Source: Kribbella capetownensis (lineage in GTDB: Bacteria; Actinomycetota; Actinomycetes; Propionibacteriales; Kribbellaceae). Taken from it: 64,000 bases of DNA. Shown here piece after piece: positions 45,110 to 54,132 of this stretch (position 1 is the first letter of the stretch; each line of letters opens with the position of its first letter). The stretch covers positions 496,001-560,000 of the forward strand of contig NZ_SJKD01000003.1 of assembly GCF_004331485.1 (NCBI RefSeq), written 5' to 3'. The translations under genes and the position numbers were made by a program. The notes beneath the pieces are model-generated. The model worked only from the letters and a program-made list of their open reading frames with translations. It was not told the DNA's origin and did no database searches.

Positions 45110-45658
45110 GTGCCGACCGAACCTCGCCTGTCCCGCCGCGCCGTCATCGCGACTGCCGTGGTGCTGCCCGGTGCCGTCGCGCTGGGCGGCTGCAAGGACG
45201 ACGAGGCGGGCTCCGGTACGCCGGGCGCCGTCGACCCGAAGACCGGTCAGGCGGTCGAGGAGACGCCGACCGTCGATCCGGCCGTGGTCGCGTCACTCAG
45301 TGCGGCCGCGGCCCAGGTGACTCTATTGTCCCTCGGCTACACCAGTACCAGCCGGAAGTTCCCGGCCCTGCGCACGCAGCTGGCCGCCGGGGCGAAGTAC
45401 CACGCGAGCCACCTGGCCAAGCTGAAGGAGACAGCCGGCGTGCAGGCCACCACTCCGAAGGCCCCGGCAGCCGCGAGTACGTCGTCTGCCGCACTCGCCG
45501 CCCTGGCCAAGCAGGAGAAGGCCGCGGCGGCCGCCCACGCTGCTGCGGCGGTCAAGCTGTCGGGTGCTCCCGCCCGGTTGCTGGCCATGATCGCGGCGTC
45601 CGAGTTGCAGCTCGGGACGAAGCTGACCCCGGCGAAGAAGAAAGCGGACGCATCGTGA
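45110..45658 (+). CDS. Tat-type lipoprotein, ferritin-like DUF4439 partner
   Basis: The 182-residue protein has a twin-arginine signal ('LSRRAVIATAVVLPGAVALG') ending in lipobox 'LGGC' with Cys28, so it is likely exported folded and lipid-anchored. The mature part is Ala/Lys-rich and helical ('AALAKQEKAAAAAHAAAAVK'). It overlaps the next gene by 4 bp (GTGA), and the pair resembles the lipoprotein/DUF4439 pairs conserved next to rimP in actinobacteria. The function is unknown. Confidence 0.72.
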   Translation: MPTEPRLSRRAVIATAVVLPGAVALGGCKDDEAGSGTPGAVDPKTGQAVEETPTVDPAVVASLSAAAAQVTLLSLGYTSTSRKFPALRTQLAAGAKYHASHLAKLKETAGVQATTPKAPAAASTSSAALAALAKQEKAAAAAHAAAAVKLSGAPARLLAMIAASELQLGTKLTPAKKKADAS

Positions 45659-46065
45659 CCGAGGTGGAGGCCCTGCAGGCGGCGCTGGCCGGCGAGCACG
45701 CCGCGCTGTACGGCATCGGCGTTGCCGGCGGCAAGCTCAGCGGCGCCCGGTTCCGGTCTGCGACCGATTCCTACGAGCAGCACCGGCTGAACCGCGACCG
45801 CCTCAGCCAGCTCGTCGTCGCCGCGGGCGAGACCCCGGCCGCGGCCGAGCCGGCGTACGACCTGCCGCAGGCCGTGACCAACGCGGCGACCGCGGCCGCG
45901 CTGATCCTGCTGATCGAGCGGCGGCTGGCGGCGGTGTACGGCGATCTGGTCGAGTCGGCGGAGAAGCCGGCGGTGCGGACTTTCGCCGTCAACGGGCTGC
46001 TCGCGAACGCCGGCGCCCAGCTCAGCTGGGGCGGTACGCCGGTCGCCTTCCCCGGCGCCGTCTGA
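45655..46065 (+). CDS. ferritin-like DUF4439 protein
   Basis: The 136-residue protein is all-helical: 'EVEALQAALAGEHAALYGIG', 'RFRSATDSYEQHRLNRDRLS', 'AALILLIERRLAAVYGDLVE'. Glu/His pairs fit the ferritin-like DUF4439 family, although metal binding is unproven. GTG 45655 overlaps the lipoprotein gene stop. It is the last gene before the biosynthetic operon. Confidence 0.75.
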   Translation: MTEVEALQAALAGEHAALYGIGVAGGKLSGARFRSATDSYEQHRLNRDRLSQLVVAAGETPAAAEPAYDLPQAVTNAATAAALILLIERRLAAVYGDLVESAEKPAVRTFAVNGLLANAGAQLSWGGTPVAFPGAV

Positions 46066-46292: not shown

Positions 46293-46646
46293 ATGCGCAC
46301 ATTCGATCTGAGCACCGGTGACGACCAGTACGTGAAGGACCTGCGGGTGGTCCGTTGGGAGCAGTACGGACTCGAGCGGGACCTGCCCTTCCAGGCGATG
46401 TGGTACTCCGTTCCGCCGGGTTCGGAAAGCCCGGTCGACCAGCACCCCGAACTCGAACTGTCCGTCGTCGTCGCGGGAACGGCGTACGTCGTCGTCGGCG
46501 GCCGCGAACACGTGGTCCCCCAAGGCAACGCCTTCCTGCTCAGCAGTACCGAGGCGCACGTCGTACAGAACCGGTCGGCCGACACCGAACTGACCGTCTT
46601 CAGCGCCTATTGGATGCCGATCACCGCCGAGCCCGGCCATGGCTGA
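46293..46646 (+). CDS. stand-alone cupin, probable N-N-bond-forming component
   Basis: The 117-residue single-domain cupin has metal-ligand candidates in 'VDQHPELELSVVVAGTAYVV' (about residues 48-67) and 'SSTEAHVVQN' (about 87-96). In hydrazine synthetases of the s56-p1 and triacsin pathways, a cupin is fused to the N terminus of a MetRS-like domain and performs the rearrangement that makes the N-N bond. Here the cupin is separate but lies directly before, and overlaps by 8 bp, the MetRS-like gene. ATG 46293 has GGAGGG 9 nt upstream. An in-frame GTG at 46173 is rejected because the extension has no cupin homology or ribosome site. Confidence 0.75.
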   Translation: MRTFDLSTGDDQYVKDLRVVRWEQYGLERDLPFQAMWYSVPPGSESPVDQHPELELSVVVAGTAYVVVGGREHVVPQGNAFLLSSTEAHVVQNRSADTELTVFSAYWMPITAEPGHG

Positions 46647-47899
46647 TCCGGTCACGGTCTTCACTTCCCCACAGCCGACCGTCAACGGCCCGTTGCACGT
46701 CGGCCATCTGGCCGGTCCGTACCTCGGGGCCGACCTAGCCGCCCGGGCCGCGCGCGCCCGCGGCGAGCGCGTCGTGGTCACCACCGGCCTCGACGTGCAC
46801 CTGAACTACGTGCTGACCCGCGCCGAGGGCGAAGGCGTCGAGGTCGGCGTGATGACGGCGGAGTTCCGCGACGACATCAAGGCCACCTCCGCTGCGACGC
46901 CGTTGCGCGAGATCACCCTGCACGCCTGCGCGGATTGCGGCCGGACCCTGCACGAGTCCTACCTGCGTGGCCTGTGCGGCGAGTGCAAGGCACCCGCAGC
47001 AGGCGGCGCGTGTGAACAGTGCGGCAGCCTCACTCAGGTCGACACCATGGTCGATCCGGTCTGCGGCCACTGTGGTGGCGAGCCGCGTCCCTTCGCCGCG
47101 ACGGTGCCGGTACTGCGGATGGAGGACCACCGCGAAGCCCTGATCGCGATGTGGTTGCGCGCCGATCTGCCACCCGCCGTCCGCGACCTGATCGACCGGA
47201 CCCTGCAGGCCAGACTCCCGGAGCTCGCACTCGCCTACCCCACCAACTGGGGACTTGAAGGCGACGGTCCGCTCACCGGCCTGCGGATCGGCCCGTACAC
47301 CGAGATCGCGCTCTCCGACCTGTACGCCGTTGCCCGCGGCATCGATCCGGAGGCCGCGGATGTACCGGAGTACCTGACGGCGCTGACCCAGGTCGGATCG
47401 CTGTGGCACTTCCTCGGCCTGGACAACGCGTTCTGGTACGCGTTGTACTGGCCGGCCGTCCGGGCCGCGGCCGGCGTCGCCCGGCTGCCCCTTTCCGGCC
47501 TGGTGGTGAACGAGTTCTACACGTTCGCCGGAGAGAAATTCTCGACCAGCCGGAAACACGGGACCGGCGCGACGGAATTGCTGCGGACCGAAGACCCGTC
47601 AATCGTTCGCTTGTTTCTGGCCTGGGACCGGCCAGACCGCTTCCGTAGTGATTTCAGCTTCAATTCCTTCCGCGCCTTCGCCGAGCGGGTCGAACCCATT
47701 GCTCGCCGGCGGCGAGAGCGTTTCCGAGCCACTCGATCCAGACCTTTCCTCGATCGAACTCGCCCGCGGCGAAAGCGCCTTGCGGCCGGACGGATTCGAT
47801 CCACCGCTGGCGGTCCGCAGTCTGCTCACGCTGCTCGCCGGCGGCATCCAGGAGACCGGGTCACTGCGCGCCGCGCTGACCGGGTCTGAGCAGGAGTAG
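46639..47899 (+). CDS. MetRS-like amino-acid-activating enzyme with apparent +1 frameshift
   Basis: This class I aminoacyl-tRNA-synthetase core has 'PLHVGHLAGPYLG' (HIGH motif, residues 20-23), a zinc insertion with four CXXC pairs (CADC, CGEC, CEQC, CGHC, about 97-145) and KMSKS-like 'KFSTS' (300-304). It lacks the tRNA anticodon domain, so it probably adenylates an amino acid, glycine by analogy with hydrazine synthetases. The ATG frame stays open to 47889, but after about 47690 it becomes Arg-rich nonsense. The +1 frame instead reads 'LLAGGESVSEPLDPDLSSIE' and ends at TAG 47899, inside the next ribosome site. A shift at GAA-CCC-A-TTG (47692-47701) restores a 419-residue protein. It may be a mutation, sequencing error or recoding. 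Confidence 0.78.
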
Positions 47900-47903
47900 G
47901 GCG

Positions 47904-50252
47904 ATGCGAGTCTGCGTCATCGGAGCCGGCATCGCCGGTGCCCTGCTGGCCTGGCGCCTCAGCGAGAGCGTCGAGGTCGACCTGGTGACCGGTGAGGCTG
48001 GGACGGATGCGACCGCGGCGTCGGGCGGCGGCGTACGTGGGTTCGAGACCCATCCGGTCCAGCGTCGGCTGGCCATCGAGAGCCTGACCGAGTTGTTCGA
48101 GGGTCTGCAGGAGCAGGCCGGCTACATCGAGACCGGCTGCACCTACCTGTTGCCGTCGTACGCCGGGCTCGAGGCGGCGGTAGCCGAGGTCGAACACGCC
48201 CACCCGGGCTCGACCGAGATCGTCGACGGCGCCGACCTTCGCCGCCGGGGCTGGCACGGCCTGCCCGACGACACGGTCGGCGTACTCGAGAAGCGGGCCG
48301 GCTTCATCCGGCCGGACCAACTCCGCTCGGCCGTGATCCGCCGGCTCGCGAACGGCCCGCGCAGCCGAGTGCTCAACGGTCCGGTACTCCGGCTCGTGCC
48401 GCACCCGGACGGATCGGTGAGCTGTCGCCTCCCCGCGTCCAGCCACCGGTACGACGCTGTCGTCGTCGCGGCCGGACCGTGGACACCCGGACTGCTCACC
48501 GGCAGCGCGCTCCCGGCCCAGCCGTATCGCACGAAGGCAATCCAGGTCGCCACCTACCGCGTCACCGGCGCCCTGCCGACCATGTTCGTCGACGAGACCA
48601 GTGACCTGTACGGGCGGCCCACCGCCGACGGCCGGCTGCTGCTCGGTGTCGACACCCACCACTGGTCCGTCACTCCCGGCAGCAGCCGGCCGATCCCGGA
48701 CCTGGCCGAGCAGGCCGTCCGGATCGCCGCCGAACGGCTGCCACACCTCAAGCTGTCGGCGCCCGACCTGATGGTCAGCAACGCCGATTGTTACGCCGAT
48801 CCGCCGGTACTGACCCTCTGGTCGGTCCTCGGCAGCTCACATCGGCTCTACACCTTCACCGGTGGGTCCGGGGGCAGCGTGAAAACCGCGCTGGCCGCAA
48901 GCCGGACGGCCGCGAGCGACCTGATCGGCACATCGCGCACCACCACTTCGCGGACGGAGAACAAGCGCATGACCATCACGGAACCAGGCCCGCAGCGAGG
49001 AACGCCCCGCTACCACACCATCGGTATCGGGGCCGGTCCCTCCAACCTCTCGCTGGCGGCGCTGTACCAGAACGTCACCACCGAACCGCTCGCCCTGTTC
49101 GACGCCCGCCCGGGCACCGGCTGGCACACGCCCCTGCTCTACCCCGGGGTCCGGATGCAGACCGGCTGGATGAAGGACCTGGTGTCGCTGGTCGACCCGC
49201 GGCACGAGCTGACGTTCCTGAACTACCTGGTCACCTCCGGGCGGCTCTATGCGCTGATCAACTCCCAGTTCGACTCGCTCCCCCGGATCGAGTACGAGCG
49301 CTATCTGGCCTGGGCGACCGAGCGCCTCGGCGTCGTGCACTTCACCTCCCGGGTGGACTCGATCTCGATCACCGACGACGGCTTCGAGGTCAGCGTCGAC
49401 GGTGTCCCGGCCGGCGTCTCCGAACACCTGGTCCTCGGTCTGGGCACGCGCCCGGTCCGGCCGGCGTACATCACCGAACTGCCCGCCGAGCGTGCCTTCA
49501 TCGCCGACGACCTCGGCGTACGGATGGCTGGGCTGGACACGGCCGCTCCGACAGCGGTTGTCGGCGGCGGCCAGACGGGACTGGAGTGTGTCCTGCGGCT
49601 GCTTGGCTCCGGCTTCACCGACATCCACTGGCTCGGCCGGAACCAGTGGTTCCGCAGCATCGATGACTCGCCGATGGCCAACGAGCTGTACCGGCCGTCC
49701 CACATCGAGTACCTGCAGGGCCTGAACCGCGGCAAGCGCCGTGAGATGATCGACGACTCCCGCTACAGCGGGGACGCCATCACCCCCGGCGGCCTGCGAG
49801 CGCTGTACCAGGCCAACTACGACGGCATGCTGACGCTCGGCCGGTTCCCGGTCACCCTGCTGCCCGGCCGCGACGTCAGGACGTCCGAACTGCTGGCCGA
49901 CGGCAACATCCGCCTGTGCTGTACGACGACCTCAACGCCGGAGGAGCACGTCGTACGGCAGGTGGTGGTCGCGGCCGGGCGCGAGCACGTGACGGCACCG
50001 TTCGACGACGATCTGCGGGAGCGGATCGAGGTCGACGACGACGGTGAACTGCTGGTCGAGCCGGACTACTCGGTGCGCTGGAAAGGCATGAACGGGCACC
50101 GGATCTACACGTTCAACGCGAGCCGGTACAGCCACGGGCTGACGAACGCCGGGCTGACGCAACTGCCGGTCCGGGCCGCGATCGTGCTGAACTCCATGTT
50201 CGAGCGGGAGATCTACCCGATCTCCGACGAGTTGTGCGCGGTGCAGTGGTGA
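47904..50252 (+). CDS. fusion: DAO-type FAD oxidoreductase + L-lysine/L-ornithine N-monooxygenase
   Basis: This is one open frame of 782 residues. Residues 1-350 are a glycine-oxidase/DAO flavoprotein (dinucleotide motif 'VIGAGIAGALLAWRL', 'VVVAAGPWTPGLL', C-terminal 'TFTGGSGGSVKTAL'). Residues 356-782 are an N-hydroxylating monooxygenase of the IucD/PvdA type ('IGIGAGPSNLSLAALYQN' FAD site, 'MQTGWMKDLVSLVDPRHELT', NADPH site 'AVVGGGQTGLECVL'). In hydrazinoacetate pathways these are separate: the monooxygenase makes N6-hydroxylysine, and the oxidase cleaves the lysine-glycine hydrazine. An internal ATG 48969 with GGAGA 8 nt upstream could also yield the monooxygenase alone. Confidence 0.85.
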   Translation: MRVCVIGAGIAGALLAWRLSESVEVDLVTGEAGTDATAASGGGVRGFETHPVQRRLAIESLTELFEGLQEQAGYIETGCTYLLPSYAGLEAAVAEVEHAHPGSTEIVDGADLRRRGWHGLPDDTVGVLEKRAGFIRPDQLRSAVIRRLANGPRSRVLNGPVLRLVPHPDGSVSCRLPASSHRYDAVVVAAGPWTPGLLTGSALPAQPYRTKAIQVATYRVTGALPTMFVDETSDLYGRPTADGRLLLGVDTHHWSVTPGSSRPIPDLAEQAVRIAAERLPHLKLSAPDLMVSNADCYADPPVLTLWSVLGSSHRLYTFTGGSGGSVKTALAASRTAASDLIGTSRTTTSRTENKRMTITEPGPQRGTPRYHTIGIGAGPSNLSLAALYQNVTTEPLALFDARPGTGWHTPLLYPGVRMQTGWMKDLVSLVDPRHELTFLNYLVTSGRLYALINSQFDSLPRIEYERYLAWATERLGVVHFTSRVDSISITDDGFEVSVDGVPAGVSEHLVLGLGTRPVRPAYITELPAERAFIADDLGVRMAGLDTAAPTAVVGGGQTGLECVLRLLGSGFTDIHWLGRNQWFRSIDDSPMANELYRPSHIEYLQGLNRGKRREMIDDSRYSGDAITPGGLRALYQANYDGMLTLGRFPVTLLPGRDVRTSELLADGNIRLCCTTTSTPEEHVVRQVVVAAGREHVTAPFDDDLRERIEVDDDGELLVEPDYSVRWKGMNGHRIYTFNASRYSHGLTNAGLTQLPVRAAIVLNSMFEREIYPISDELCAVQW

Positions 50253-50395
50253 CCGCGACAGTCCCGGAACCGCTGGTCCCCGACGTCGACGGGGTGTGTT
50301 TCCGGCTCGAGGTCGACGATCCGGCCGGCTCGTTCGATGCGGCGTACTGCCCTGGTCACCGCGACAGGCGACCTGGTCAGGGAGGCCTGAGATGA
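50249..50395 (+). CDS. 48-residue coupled small protein, unknown
   Basis: GTG 50249 overlaps the fusion gene stop (GTGA) and its TGA (50393-50395) overlaps the ATG of the ATP-grasp gene (ATGA). Such overlaps at both ends suggest a real coupled cistron. The product starts 'MTATVPEPLVPDVDGVCFRL' and has two cysteines (17 and 34). The first 35 or so codons have typical GC-rich third positions; the last dozen do not, so it may be a truncated remnant. A precursor peptide for the ATP-grasp enzymes is an unproven alternative. Confidence 0.45.
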   Translation: MTATVPEPLVPDVDGVCFRLEVDDPAGSFDAAYCPGHRDRRPGQGGLR

Positions 50396-51639
50396 ACGAA
50401 CGACCTCACCTGCTGGTGGTGGCCACCGGCATGCGGCTGTTCCGGGAGTACATCCTGCGGTCGATCGCACCGCAGTACCGGATCCACATGTTCCTGCACG
50501 CCGAGCCCACCTGGGAGACGGAGTACATCGAGAACTGGACCGTGCTGGACAGCACGCTCGACGCCGACGCTCTGGTCGCCGCGGCGAACGAACTCAACGA
50601 CAAGGAGGCGATCGACGGCGTGCTGTGCTGGGACGAGGCACGCATCCTGCAGACCGCCCGCATCGCCGAAGCGCTCGGGCTGCCGGGCGGTGATGTCGCG
50701 ATGGTGAACCGTTGCCGCGACAAGCACCTGACGCGTACGGCGCTCGCCGAGCACGGCATCCCGCAGCCGAAGTCGATCCTGGTGGCCACCGTCGACGAGG
50801 CACTGGCAGTCGCCGGCGACCTCGGCTACCCGGTGATCCTCAAGCCTCGCGCCCTGGCCGCCAGTCTCGGCGTGGTCAAGGTGAACTCGCCGGAGGAACT
50901 CGGGGCGAACTGGGCCTTCGCTCACGACACGACCGTGCCGGAGGCGCCGCACTACGACGTCAACGTGCTGGTCGAGGAGTTCGCCGACGGCTACGAGATC
51001 AGTATCGACGCGGCGATCTACCAGGGCCAGGTGACGCCGTTCTGCCTGGCCCGCAAGGAGATCGGCTACCCGCCGTACGCCGAAGAGATCGGGCACGTGG
51101 TGGATGCGGCGGATCCGTTGCTCGCCGATGACCAACTCCTGCAGGTGCTCGTCGATGCGCACAAGGCGATCGCGTTCACCGATGGCGTGACGCACACCGA
51201 GCTCATGATCACCGCCGACGGACCGAAGCTGATCGAGATCAACGCCCGGATCGGCGGCGACCTGATCCCGTACCTCGGTCTGCAGGCGACCGGTGTGGAT
51301 CCGGGGCTGGCGGCGGCCGCGGTCGCGTGCGGGCGTCAGCCCCTGCTGCTGCCGGACCGCACCATGGTCGGCGGCGTCCGCTTCTTCTACGTGGACGAGG
51401 ACGACACGGTGCTCGACTCCGTCGGCTTCGACTCCGACGGTCTGCCGGGCACGATCGACCAACTGGTGCCACTGATGGAGGTCGGCGCCACGACCAGCCC
51501 TCCGCCGGCGGGCACGCTGTGGGGCCGGATCGCCTACGCCACGACCGTCGCCACCACGGTGGACGACTGCCGCGCCGGACTCGACGCGGCGGAGAAGGCG
51601 CTGCGCTGGTCAGGCCATCCCAAGGAGCCGACGCCATGA
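50392..51639 (+). CDS. ATP-grasp ligase 1 (carboxylate-amine ligase)
   Basis: The 415-residue protein has the biotin-carboxylase/D-Ala-D-Ala-ligase type ATP-grasp fold: 'DKHLTRTALAEHGIPQPKSI' (about 112), ATP lysine in 'YPVILKPRALAASLGVVKV', 'VLVEEFADGYEISIDAAIY' and metal-binding 'KLIEINARIGGDLIPYL' (about 281-297). It should activate a carboxylate as acyl phosphate and join it to an amine, plausibly hydrazinoacetate to an amino acid. ATG 50392 has GGGAGG 8 nt upstream. The stop overlaps the MFS start (ATGA). Confidence 0.85.
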   Translation: MNERPHLLVVATGMRLFREYILRSIAPQYRIHMFLHAEPTWETEYIENWTVLDSTLDADALVAAANELNDKEAIDGVLCWDEARILQTARIAEALGLPGGDVAMVNRCRDKHLTRTALAEHGIPQPKSILVATVDEALAVAGDLGYPVILKPRALAASLGVVKVNSPEELGANWAFAHDTTVPEAPHYDVNVLVEEFADGYEISIDAAIYQGQVTPFCLARKEIGYPPYAEEIGHVVDAADPLLADDQLLQVLVDAHKAIAFTDGVTHTELMITADGPKLIEINARIGGDLIPYLGLQATGVDPGLAAAAVACGRQPLLLPDRTMVGGVRFFYVDEDDTVLDSVGFDSDGLPGTIDQLVPLMEVGATTSPPPAGTLWGRIAYATTVATTVDDCRAGLDAAEKALRWSGHPKEPTP

Positions 51640-52901
51640 CGTCGACCGACGAGAGCACCGGCATCTGGGAGACCATCCGGGATGCTCCGGTGCCGGTGAA
51701 GGCGCTGCTGGTCGGCGTGTTCGTGAACAAGCTCGGCTGGTTCCTGCAGGTCTTCCTGGTGTTGTTCCTGACCACGTCGAAGGGGTTCACGCCGGTCCAG
51801 GCCGGCACCGCGCTCGGCGTGTACGGCGGTGGCTCGGTGATCGGCCTGATCATCGGCGGATCGCTGTCGGACCGGGTCGGGCCACGGGCCGCGGTGATGA
51901 TCAGCATGTTCGGGATGGCGGGATTCGTCCTCGCGATCGCCTACGTACCGAGCTACACGGCCGTGGTGGTCGTGGTGGCGCTGGCCGGTGCGGTCGGCCA
52001 GTTCTACCGCCCGGCCTCGGCCGCCCTGCTGACCGAGCTGACACCGAAGAACCGGCAGGTGATGATCTTCGCGGTCTACCGGCTGGCCATGAACCTCGGT
52101 ACGACGGCAGCGCCGCTGATCGGCGCCGCCCTCGTCGCGGTGTCCTGGAACCTGCTGTTCATCGGCGAAGCGGTCGCCGCACTGGCCTACGCGGCAGTGG
52201 CGATCGTCGCGCTGCCGAAGCGATCCGCAACCGCCGTTGAGCAAACCCCGGACGACCAGCCGTCGGCCGGCGGCTACGTCGCCGTACTGCGGGACTACAA
52301 GTACGTGCTGTTCCTGCTGTGCATGTTCATCAACGCGGCGATCTACATGCAGTACTTGGCCGTGCTGCCGCTGCACATGAAAGCGGACGGGCTGTCGACC
52401 TGGTGGTACAGCGCGATCGTCGCGCTCAACGGCTTCGTCGTGATCACCTGTGAGTTGCTCGTGACGAAGGTGGTGCAGAACCGACCGGCGAGAGTGGTCG
52501 CGATGACCGGTTTCGTACTGCTGGGCGGCGGCCTCGCGTTCTACGCCCTGCCCGGCGGGTTGGCGATCTTCGTGATCGGCACCCTGCTCTGGACACTGGC
52601 CGAGATCATCGGCGGCCCGACCATGTTCGCGTATCCAGGTATGGCCGCACCGAAGCCATTACTCGGCCGGTACGTCGGATCCGCGCACGCCATGTTCGGC
52701 CTCGGGTCCGCCCTTGGCCCGTTCCTCGGAGTGTGGGTGTGGAACACGTCCGGCAGCCAGGTCTGGGTGTGGTGCGGGCTGGCCGGCGCGATCGGCGTCG
52801 TCCTCGCGTACTTCGGCATGACGCCCACGACCGCCGAGGACACCAGCATCGACGCCACTCCGGCCGCGGAGCCGGAGCTTGTAGGAGGACAAGATGAGTA
52901 G
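51636..52901 (+). CDS. MFS transporter of the biosynthetic operon
   Basis: The 421-residue protein has about 12 helices with MFS motif A 'GGSLSDRVGPRAAVMI' (about residues 74-89) and a basic central loop ('ALPKRSATAVEQTPDD'). It is embedded by 4-bp and 8-bp overlaps between the two ATP-grasp genes and most likely exports the product, giving self-protection. ATG 51636 is fixed by the ATGA junction. Confidence 0.85.
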   Translation: MTSTDESTGIWETIRDAPVPVKALLVGVFVNKLGWFLQVFLVLFLTTSKGFTPVQAGTALGVYGGGSVIGLIIGGSLSDRVGPRAAVMISMFGMAGFVLAIAYVPSYTAVVVVVALAGAVGQFYRPASAALLTELTPKNRQVMIFAVYRLAMNLGTTAAPLIGAALVAVSWNLLFIGEAVAALAYAAVAIVALPKRSATAVEQTPDDQPSAGGYVAVLRDYKYVLFLLCMFINAAIYMQYLAVLPLHMKADGLSTWWYSAIVALNGFVVITCELLVTKVVQNRPARVVAMTGFVLLGGGLAFYALPGGLAIFVIGTLLWTLAEIIGGPTMFAYPGMAAPKPLLGRYVGSAHAMFGLGSALGPFLGVWVWNTSGSQVWVWCGLAGAIGVVLAYFGMTPTTAEDTSIDATPAAEPELVGGQDE

Positions 52902-54132
52902 CTACACGATCATCGTGGACCCGCTGTCCACGGGACAGGAATATCCGGCCGCGTTCCGCGAGGCCGGCCGGCTGCCGGTCGCCGTACTCAGTGCTTCCGA
53001 GCCCCCACCGGCCTACACGACGAGCTGGCATCCGGAGGACTTCGAGCACGTGCACTACTTCACCGGCGACGTACAGGCGCTCGTCGAGGAGCTGCGGCAG
53101 TACGAGCCGGAGTACCTGGTGCCTGGTGCGGAGAGCGGGGTCGAGCTGTGCGACCGGCTGATCGGGCTCCTGGCTCCCGGCACCGGCAACGTCCCGGAGC
53201 TGGCGCCGGCACGGCGGGACAAGTGGGAGATGGCGCAGGCGCTCGCGGCCGCGGGTGTACCGCGGTTGCGCCAGTTCCTGACCGCGGATCCGGTCGAGGC
53301 GGAGCGGTGGCTGAAGGAGAACGACCTGCTCGGCAAGCGGCTGGTGATCAAGCCGTCGAAGAGCGCCGCCGGCGACGAGGTGTACGTCGTCTTCGAGGAC
53401 GGTGACTGGCGGGAGCGGTTCGACCGGGTCCTTGGCCGGACCAACAAGATGGGGCTGACCAACGACGCCGTCCTGATCCAGGAGTACGCCGAAGGAACGG
53501 AGTACCTGGTCGACACCTACAGCGTGGACGGGAAGCACGCACTGGTCGACGTGTGCCGCTACACGAAGGTCGGCCGGGGCGACAAGATCGGCATCTACCG
53601 GCGGATCGACTTCCTGGCCGAGGCCGACGCGGAGGTGCAGGCGCTGTGGCCGTACACCAGGGACGTGCTCGACGCGGTCGGCATCCGGGTCGGCTGCGGT
53701 CATGTCGAGGTGATGATGACGCCGGCCGGACCGCGGCTGATCGAGGTCGCGGCGCGGCCCGCCGGCGGTGGTCACCAGATGGTCAGCGACCTCGCCACCG
53801 GTGACAACCACATCAAGCGCACGGTGGCGCACCGGGTGCGCGGCGAGGTGCGGGACGGCTTCGACCTGGTCCAGCACCTACGCGGCATCTTCGTCATCGC
53901 ACCGCGGGAGGGGTACTTCCGCAACCGCGAGATCTTCGACGACATCGAGTCGCTGAAGTCGTTCCACTGGATGAAGATCCTGTACGACGAGGACGCCGTC
54001 GTCCCCGAGACCGTGGATCTGTTCACCTGCCTGGCCTGGGTCATCCTGATCCACAGCGACCCGGCCACCCTCGACGCCGACTACCACCGGGTCCTGGAGA
54101 TGGAGTCCGGCATCGTCATCACCACCGCCTGA
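52894..54132 (+). CDS. ATP-grasp ligase 2
   Basis: The 412-residue ATP-grasp protein belongs to a different branch from ligase 1. Its N domain ends 'PEYLVPGAESGVELCDRL'; next come 'DKWEMAQALAAAGVPRLRQF', ATP lysine 'RLVIKPSKSAAGDEVYVV', 'VLIQEYAEGTEYLVDTYSVD' and a variant metal motif 'RLIEVAARPAGGG' (Ala-Ala where N-x is usual). It may make a second amide bond or act on a different carboxylate. GGAGG 5 nt before ATG 52894 is strong. It is the last gene, followed by a 17-bp terminator. Confidence 0.83.
   Translation: MSSYTIIVDPLSTGQEYPAAFREAGRLPVAVLSASEPPPAYTTSWHPEDFEHVHYFTGDVQALVEELRQYEPEYLVPGAESGVELCDRLIGLLAPGTGNVPELAPARRDKWEMAQALAAAGVPRLRQFLTADPVEAERWLKENDLLGKRLVIKPSKSAAGDEVYVVFEDGDWRERFDRVLGRTNKMGLTNDAVLIQEYAEGTEYLVDTYSVDGKHALVDVCRYTKVGRGDKIGIYRRIDFLAEADAEVQALWPYTRDVLDAVGIRVGCGHVEVMMTPAGPRLIEVAARPAGGGHQMVSDLATGDNHIKRTVAHRVRGEVRDGFDLVQHLRGIFVIAPREGYFRNREIFDDIESLKSFHWMKILYDEDAVVPETVDLFTCLAWVILIHSDPATLDADYHRVLEMESGIVITTA

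What the first reader, a model, noticed from the sequence alone, without database searches (positions are those of the whole stretch)
47904..50252. Fusion of a DAO-type oxidase with an amino-acid N-hydroxylase
The enzymes acting before and after the N-N bond-forming step are one 782-residue polypeptide with a very short linker and no stop. A well-placed internal Shine-Dalgarno and ATG (48956-48971) sits at the domain border, suggesting recent fusion by stop loss and possibly two products (full-length and monooxygenase alone). Such a fusion might channel intermediates.
Basis: partly seen in the sequence, partly recalled or inferred. Interest (0 to 1): 0.75.

Follow-up and report, generated by a model that had tools for sequence, protein, structure and literature searches.

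The report
Kribbella hydrazine-pathway fusion with internal start
In half of the sequenced Kribbella species, the two flavin enzymes thought to act just before and just after nitrogen–nitrogen bond formation are one protein, and a strongly conserved ribosome-binding site buried in the join suggests that the gene also makes the second enzyme on its own.

Summary
Window 47904-50252 (+) is one open 782-codon frame joining a DAO-family flavin oxidase (residues 1-343) to a lysine/ornithine-type N-hydroxylase (about 367-775). The same stop-free fusion occurs in 19 of 38 Kribbella genomes, some in single-contig assemblies, at one syntenic locus. It was found nowhere else searched, and the nearest operons elsewhere keep two genes. 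So it is neither a sequencing error nor a recent stop loss. "Recent" is wrong; "possibly two products" is well supported. The internal ATG (48969) is kept in 19/19, has the best Shine-Dalgarno match of any conserved start codon in the gene, lies in one of the least structured stretches, and the codons just upstream show the lowest synonymous divergence in the gene. Linker length upstream of that ATG takes six values, all in frame, so the full-length form also appears to be selected. Neighbouring genes (separate cupin and MetRS-like, i.e. a split hydrazine synthetase; two ATP-grasp ligases; an exporter) place it in a hydrazine-type natural-product pathway. Channelling is unproven. In the window's own strain the MetRS-like gene and a small accessory gene are damaged; homologues of both lie elsewhere in its genome.

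The parts
47904..48932 (+). DAO-family FAD-dependent oxidase domain, residues 1-343 (Spb39/Tri27/Apy10-like role inferred)
   Evidence: Pfam DAO; AF2 model pLDDT mostly 80-97; closest solved sequences are sarcosine oxidase, N-methyltryptophan oxidase, NikD
48933..48995 (+). disordered linker, residues 344-364; variable length in relatives, carries the internal ribosome-binding site
   Evidence: pLDDT below 50; length variation
48939..48968 (+). nucleotide-level conserved block (codons 346-355), core TCGCGGACGGAGAA at 48948-48961 invariant in 19/19
48956..48959 (+). internal Shine-Dalgarno GGAG; anti-SD duplex -8.2 kcal/mol in all 19 genomes
48969..50252 (+). internal ATG start to TGA stop: amino-acid N-hydroxylase (NMO), 427 aa, 47.3 kDa as a separate product; NMO domain residues 367-775 of the fusion
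   Evidence: Pfam Lys_Orn_oxgnase; GxGPxN, GGGQTG and carboxylate-binding-type Lys K424; start-site evidence
47904..50252 (+). full-length DAO-NMO fusion gene
46293..46646 (+). stand-alone cupin subunit of a split hydrazine synthetase (117 aa)
   Evidence: Pfam Cupin_2 on the ortholog in L033
46639..47899 (+). MetRS-like subunit of the hydrazine synthetase; in this strain a 96-bp in-frame deletion (46881/46882) and a 1-nt insertion near 47695 shift the C-terminal frame into 47648-47899
   Evidence: Pfam tRNA-synt_1g on the intact ortholog
50249..50395 (+). truncated remnant of a ~125-aa small gene that is intact in nearly all relatives
50392..51639 (+). ATP-grasp ligase 1
51636..52901 (+). MFS exporter
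52894..54132 (+). ATP-grasp ligase 2

Best explanation
This is a genus-specific, long-established gene fusion in a hydrazine-type biosynthetic operon that most likely makes two proteins. Shown by sequence: one open frame encodes a DAO oxidase, a disordered linker and an amino-acid N-hydroxylase, and a conserved ribosome-binding site plus ATG sit inside the linker. Inferred: the N-hydroxylase makes an N-hydroxy amino acid (Lys, Orn or Dab); the separately encoded MetRS-like and cupin proteins join it to a second amino acid through an ester and rearrange it to a hydrazine; the DAO half then oxidatively cleaves the hydrazine adduct to release a free hydrazino acid, which the two ATP-grasp ligases build into a small peptide that the MFS protein exports. 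Ribosomes starting at 47904 make the 85-kDa fusion; ribosomes starting at 48969 make a 47-kDa N-hydroxylase. The likely purpose is to tether the release enzyme to the N-hydroxylase while supplying extra free N-hydroxylase, for example so that mixed N-hydroxylase oligomers carry fewer oxidase domains than N-hydroxylase domains. The linker peptide probably derives from the former 5' leader of the N-hydroxylase gene.
For: Domain assignments. Fusion in 19 of 38 Kribbella genomes, all stop-free, with the same flanking genes. Unfused ordered operon cupin-MetRS-DAO-NMO in two Streptomyces-type genomes (L076, L079), with DAO stop, gap and SD before NMO. Internal start: ATG in 19/19, SD -8.2 kcal/mol in all, better than the annotated start at -6.9; local MFE among the 2% least structured positions on average; GC3 after it 0.68 against 0.90; synonymous conservation peak. 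Full-length form retained: six linker lengths upstream of the ATG, all multiples of three, roughly (1/3)^5 = 0.004 if frame were free. Amino-acid rather than diamine NMO: K424 as in KtzI and MbtG, where the diamine enzymes DesB, DfoA and FbsI have A or S; the equivalent SidA Lys107 binds the substrate carboxylate (PMC7347517). Pathway logic from PMC11705231 and PMC8664883.
Against: No protein, ribosome-profiling or metabolite data exist here. The conserved nucleotides extend about 17 nt upstream of the GGAG, further than a Shine-Dalgarno alone needs, so another nucleotide signal cannot be excluded. Substrates and the bond that the DAO half cuts are not resolved. In the window's own strain the MetRS-like gene is damaged, so the pathway may be inactive or may rely on a second copy there.
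Confidence: 0.75

Rival explanations
1. Plain bifunctional fusion: only the 85-kDa protein is made, and the conserved SD-ATG is an evolutionary leftover of the former NMO start.
For: There is no stop between the halves in any genome, so DAO translation must run into NMO; fusion is in frame despite linker indels.
Against: A leftover should decay at synonymous sites like the rest of the gene (13% of invariant 4/6-fold codons are nucleotide-invariant); instead this is the most conserved spot, with the strongest SD and low structure in all 19 genomes.
Confidence: 0.14
2. Mostly separate products: NMO from the internal start is the working enzyme, and DAO with an NMO tail is tolerated without benefit from the tethering.
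For: Strong internal start signals; in 18 of 19 genomes a +1 shift would meet a TGA directly on the ATG (sequences).
Against: Six linker lengths all kept in frame and no stop in any of 19 genomes although several codons are one step from stop; splitting would be mutationally easy but was never seen in the genus.
Confidence: 0.13
3. Artefact: a sequencing or assembly error joins two ordinary genes.
For: Nearby genes in this assembly do carry indels.
Against: The same join is in 18 other assemblies, several of them one contig.
Confidence: 0.01
4. The conserved nucleotides are a DNA or RNA regulatory site (operator, internal promoter) rather than a translation start.
For: Conservation extends upstream of the GGAG.
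Against: No sigma-70-like promoter there (a weak test for this organism); the position, spacing, ATG, low structure and A/T-richer codons after the ATG all fit a start site.
Confidence: 0.06

Closest known systems
Spb38/Spb39/Spb40 (s56-p1), Tri26/Tri27/Tri28 (triacsin) and Apy11/Apy10/Apy9 (actinopyridazinone) hydrazine-forming sets
   Same: same three activities by homology: flavin N-hydroxylase, MetRS-plus-cupin hydrazine synthetase, DAO-family oxidase that cleaves the adduct (PMC11705231)
   Different: there the N-hydroxylase and the oxidase are separate proteins; here they are fused, while the MetRS-like and cupin parts, often fused elsewhere, are separate
Split cupin and MetRS-like hydrazine synthetases (e.g. 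RHS1 system of Rhodococcus jostii; PMC8664883, PMC2922099)
   Same: stand-alone cupin and MetRS-like genes next to a lysine N-hydroxylase
   Different: no DAO-NMO fusion is mentioned in the passages read
YscQ/SctQ-type genes with an internal start giving a C-terminal short form (PMC4295842)
   Same: one gene, in-frame internal start, full-length plus C-terminal product
   Different: structural secretion protein, experimentally shown; here two catalytic domains and only sequence evidence
KtzI, MbtG, DesB, DfoA, FbsI N-hydroxylases
   Same: same fold and motifs as the C-terminal half
   Different: these are single-domain enzymes of the one activity

Membership tests
Hydrazine-synthetase-dependent (Spb/Tri/Apy-type) hydrazine pathway | MetRS-like adenylating protein or domain | tested here: met
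   MetRS-like gene adjacent; intact in the 18 other Kribbella loci, Pfam tRNA-synt_1g; damaged in the window strain
Hydrazine-synthetase-dependent (Spb/Tri/Apy-type) hydrazine pathway | cupin protein or domain | tested here: met
   cupin gene in all 19 loci; Cupin_2 in Pfam
Hydrazine-synthetase-dependent (Spb/Tri/Apy-type) hydrazine pathway | flavin N-hydroxylase acting on an omega-amino group of an amino acid | tested here: inconclusive
   family and amino-acid-type K424 met; substrate not assayed
Hydrazine-synthetase-dependent (Spb/Tri/Apy-type) hydrazine pathway | DAO-family oxidase cleaving the hydrazine adduct | tested here: inconclusive
   DAO family met and relatives sit in cupin-MetRS loci; reaction not assayed
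Hydrazine-synthetase-dependent (Spb/Tri/Apy-type) hydrazine pathway | N-N bonded product | not testable with these tools
   no metabolite data
Class B flavin N-hydroxylases (SidA/IucD/PvdA/KtzI) | Lys_Orn_oxgnase fold with FAD GxGPxN and NADPH GGGQ motifs | tested here: met
Genes with an internal in-frame start making a short C-terminal product | conserved SD and start codon inside the frame | tested here: met
   19/19 genomes
Genes with an internal in-frame start making a short C-terminal product | short product detected and dependent on the internal start codon | not testable with these tools
   needs proteomics, ribosome profiling or start-codon mutants

The most novel reading that the evidence does not exclude
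A bifunctional flavoenzyme that tethers the first and third steps around N-N bond formation and, through an internal ribosome-binding site kept by selection, is mixed with free N-hydroxylase in a set ratio, forming a scaffold onto which the MetRS-like and cupin proteins dock so that unstable N-hydroxy and hydrazine intermediates are handed on.
Probability: 0.2. Interest if true: 0.75.

Novelty: new variant of a known kind. Interest (0 to 1): 0.52.

Why it matters
Hydrazine-forming pathways are a recent discovery, and how the unstable intermediates move between enzymes is open. A natural tether of the enzymes before and after the N-N step, with a built-in second product, gives a direct way to test channelling and enzyme ratio, and a possible biocatalyst. 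It is also a clear case of a gene fusion that appears to have kept the ribosome-binding site of its second half working inside the coding sequence. The Kribbella clusters look like an uncharacterised family that may make hydrazine-containing peptides.

Tried and rejected
A sequencing-error fusion was rejected by 18 other genomes. Chance open frame in high-GC DNA was rejected by homology of both halves in one frame. Frameshift-based separation was considered: a +1 TGA sits on the ATG in 18/19 genomes, but L049 lacks it and no slippery site was identified, so it was set aside. An internal promoter scan found nothing (the method does not cover this organism well). The first AF2 model, from 16 closely related sequences, was poor (pLDDT 57); a diverse alignment gave pLDDT 83. 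Plasmids held no fusion. The core start-site sequence occurs once in the genome at up to 3 mismatches, so it is not a common repeat. A literature search for Kribbella with hydrazine clusters gave nothing, and a carboxysome CcmM search for an analogue gave nothing. The genome-contig scan used only two short peptide patterns, so its absence result outside Kribbella is weak; the class and order samples are the better evidence but are samples.

Full report
Observation. The ORF at 47904-50252 on the + strand is open for 782 codons. Pfam finds DAO at residues 2-337 and Lys_Orn_oxgnase at 370-692. An AlphaFold2 model on a diverse alignment has mean pLDDT 83, with two well-formed domains and an unstructured linker at residues 344-364. 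Foldseek's best solved matches to the C-terminal half are N-hydroxylases: FbsI (putrescine N-hydroxylase), DfoA, DesB, KtzI, SidA, PvdA. The N-terminal half resembles sarcosine and N-methyltryptophan oxidases and NikD by sequence.

Distribution. The window lies in a genome of the genus that names as Kribbella (its near-identical relative is K. pittospori, 98%). The full-length, stop-free fusion is in 19 of the 38 Kribbella genomes searched, including the window's own, at 74-98% protein identity. In the other 19 only distant N-hydroxylases (about 31-35%) were found and no close DAO. Flanking genes match on the upstream side in all 19 loci and on the downstream side in most of those where the fetched stretch reaches, so the locus is syntenic. 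None was found in a class sample of 394 genomes, in 293 genomes of the order apart from Kribbella, or in plasmids. These are samples, not proof of absence.

Unfused relatives. Two Streptomyces-type genomes (genus g30, L076 and L079) carry cupin, MetRS-like, DAO and NMO in the same order, with a TGA after DAO, a gap of about 80 nt, a Shine-Dalgarno and the NMO ATG. All ten unfused DAO homologues examined end in their own stop at or soon after the region where the Kribbella linker begins. The Kribbella linker therefore probably corresponds to former intergenic sequence (inference).

Internal start. The ATG at 48969 is present in 19/19. Immediately upstream, TCG CGG ACG GAG is identical in all 19 genomes, while the linker on both sides varies in length and sequence. 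Codons 346-353 have no synonymous difference against 3.75 expected, the lowest of 744 windows. Only 37 of 286 amino-acid-invariant 4/6-fold columns in the gene are nucleotide-invariant, and no other run in four genes has three. The anti-SD duplex energy is -8.2 kcal/mol in every genome, better than the gene's own start (-6.9 mean) and all other conserved start codons. Local folding energy is among the weakest 2% of positions on average, and GC3 in the nine codons after the ATG is 0.68 against 0.90 for the gene. These lines together make a used start site likely; none of them is a measurement of protein.

Both products appear selected. Between the DAO core and the conserved block the linker takes six lengths (14, 15, 17, 18, 21, 30 residues), hence at least five length changes, all multiples of three and with no stop. 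If frame did not matter the chance would be about 0.004; this is a rough figure that assumes independent events and one-in-three odds.

Pathway. Upstream are a cupin gene (46293-46646) and a MetRS-like gene (from 46639); downstream an ATP-grasp ligase, an MFS protein and a second ATP-grasp ligase. Literature describes MetRS-like plus cupin proteins as hydrazine synthetases that join an N-hydroxy amino acid to a second amino acid, and DAO-family oxidases (Spb39, Tri27, Apy10) that cleave the adduct (PMC11705231; PMC7347517); stand-alone pairs of MetRS-like and cupin are known (PMC8664883; PMC2922099). The NMO half has Lys at 424 where KtzI and MbtG have Lys and the diamine enzymes have Ala or Ser; the corresponding SidA Lys107 contacts the substrate carboxylate (PMC7347517; the SidA correspondence is from knowledge of the family). 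This favours an amino-acid substrate. Which amino acid, and which C-N bond the DAO half oxidises, is not known.

Condition of the window's own cluster. Against the K. pittospori relative, the MetRS-like gene has a 96-bp in-frame deletion and a 1-nt insertion that shifts the last 70 or so codons; all other 18 loci have a MetRS-like frame of about 445-491 codons. The small gene after NMO is shortened, the gap to the ATP-grasp gene being 139 nt against about 352-423. On the window branch the MetRS-like gene has 10 replacement changes against 3 on the sister branch, while DAO (2) and NMO (3) stay low. Either these lesions are real and recent, or they are assembly faults. A second MetRS-like gene, 54% identical, followed by a small gene resembling the truncated one, lies on contig 7 of the same genome and might supply the function; that locus is present in 10 of the 19 fusion carriers.

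Interpretation. The best account is an old, Kribbella-specific fusion that keeps a working ribosome-binding site inside the reading frame and so makes an 85-kDa DAO-NMO protein and a 47-kDa NMO. Genes of this type are known elsewhere, for example yscQ, whose short form is needed for assembly of the long one (PMC4295842). N-hydroxylases of this class such as SidA are tetramers (PMC7347517), so mixed oligomers that carry fewer DAO domains are a plausible reason (inference). Channelling remains a hypothesis.

Novelty. The passages read in the reviews and papers named above mention cupin-MetRS fusions but no DAO-NMO fusion. The library holds only open-licence papers, so absence there is weak evidence. 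I class it as a new variant of a known kind.

Noticed in passing
window 46639-47899: The MetRS-like hydrazine-synthetase gene of this strain has a 96-bp in-frame deletion at 46881/46882 and a 1-nt insertion near 47695 relative to its closest relative; the other Kribbella loci have intact frames. Recent decay or assembly error.
   Followed up: partly
window 50249-50395: A ~125-aa small gene between NMO and the first ATP-grasp ligase, intact in nearly all relatives (shortened in L039), is reduced to a remnant here; no Pfam family matched its ortholog.
   Followed up: partly
L086 10664-12440 (G000 contig 7): Second stand-alone MetRS-like gene (54% identical to the cluster copy) followed by a homologue of the small gene, with no recognised cupin or N-hydroxylase beside it; present in 10 of 19 fusion carriers and in no searched Kribbella genome without the fusion.
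   Followed up: partly
L062 6279-10266: Related cluster in another family (f11): MetRS-like, unfused DAO, small gene, ATP-grasp (61% identical) with no N-hydroxylase next to the DAO.
   Followed up: partly
window 45110-46065: A DUF4439 gene and a lipoprotein-like neighbour directly upstream of the cupin are syntenic in all 19 loci.
   Followed up: partly
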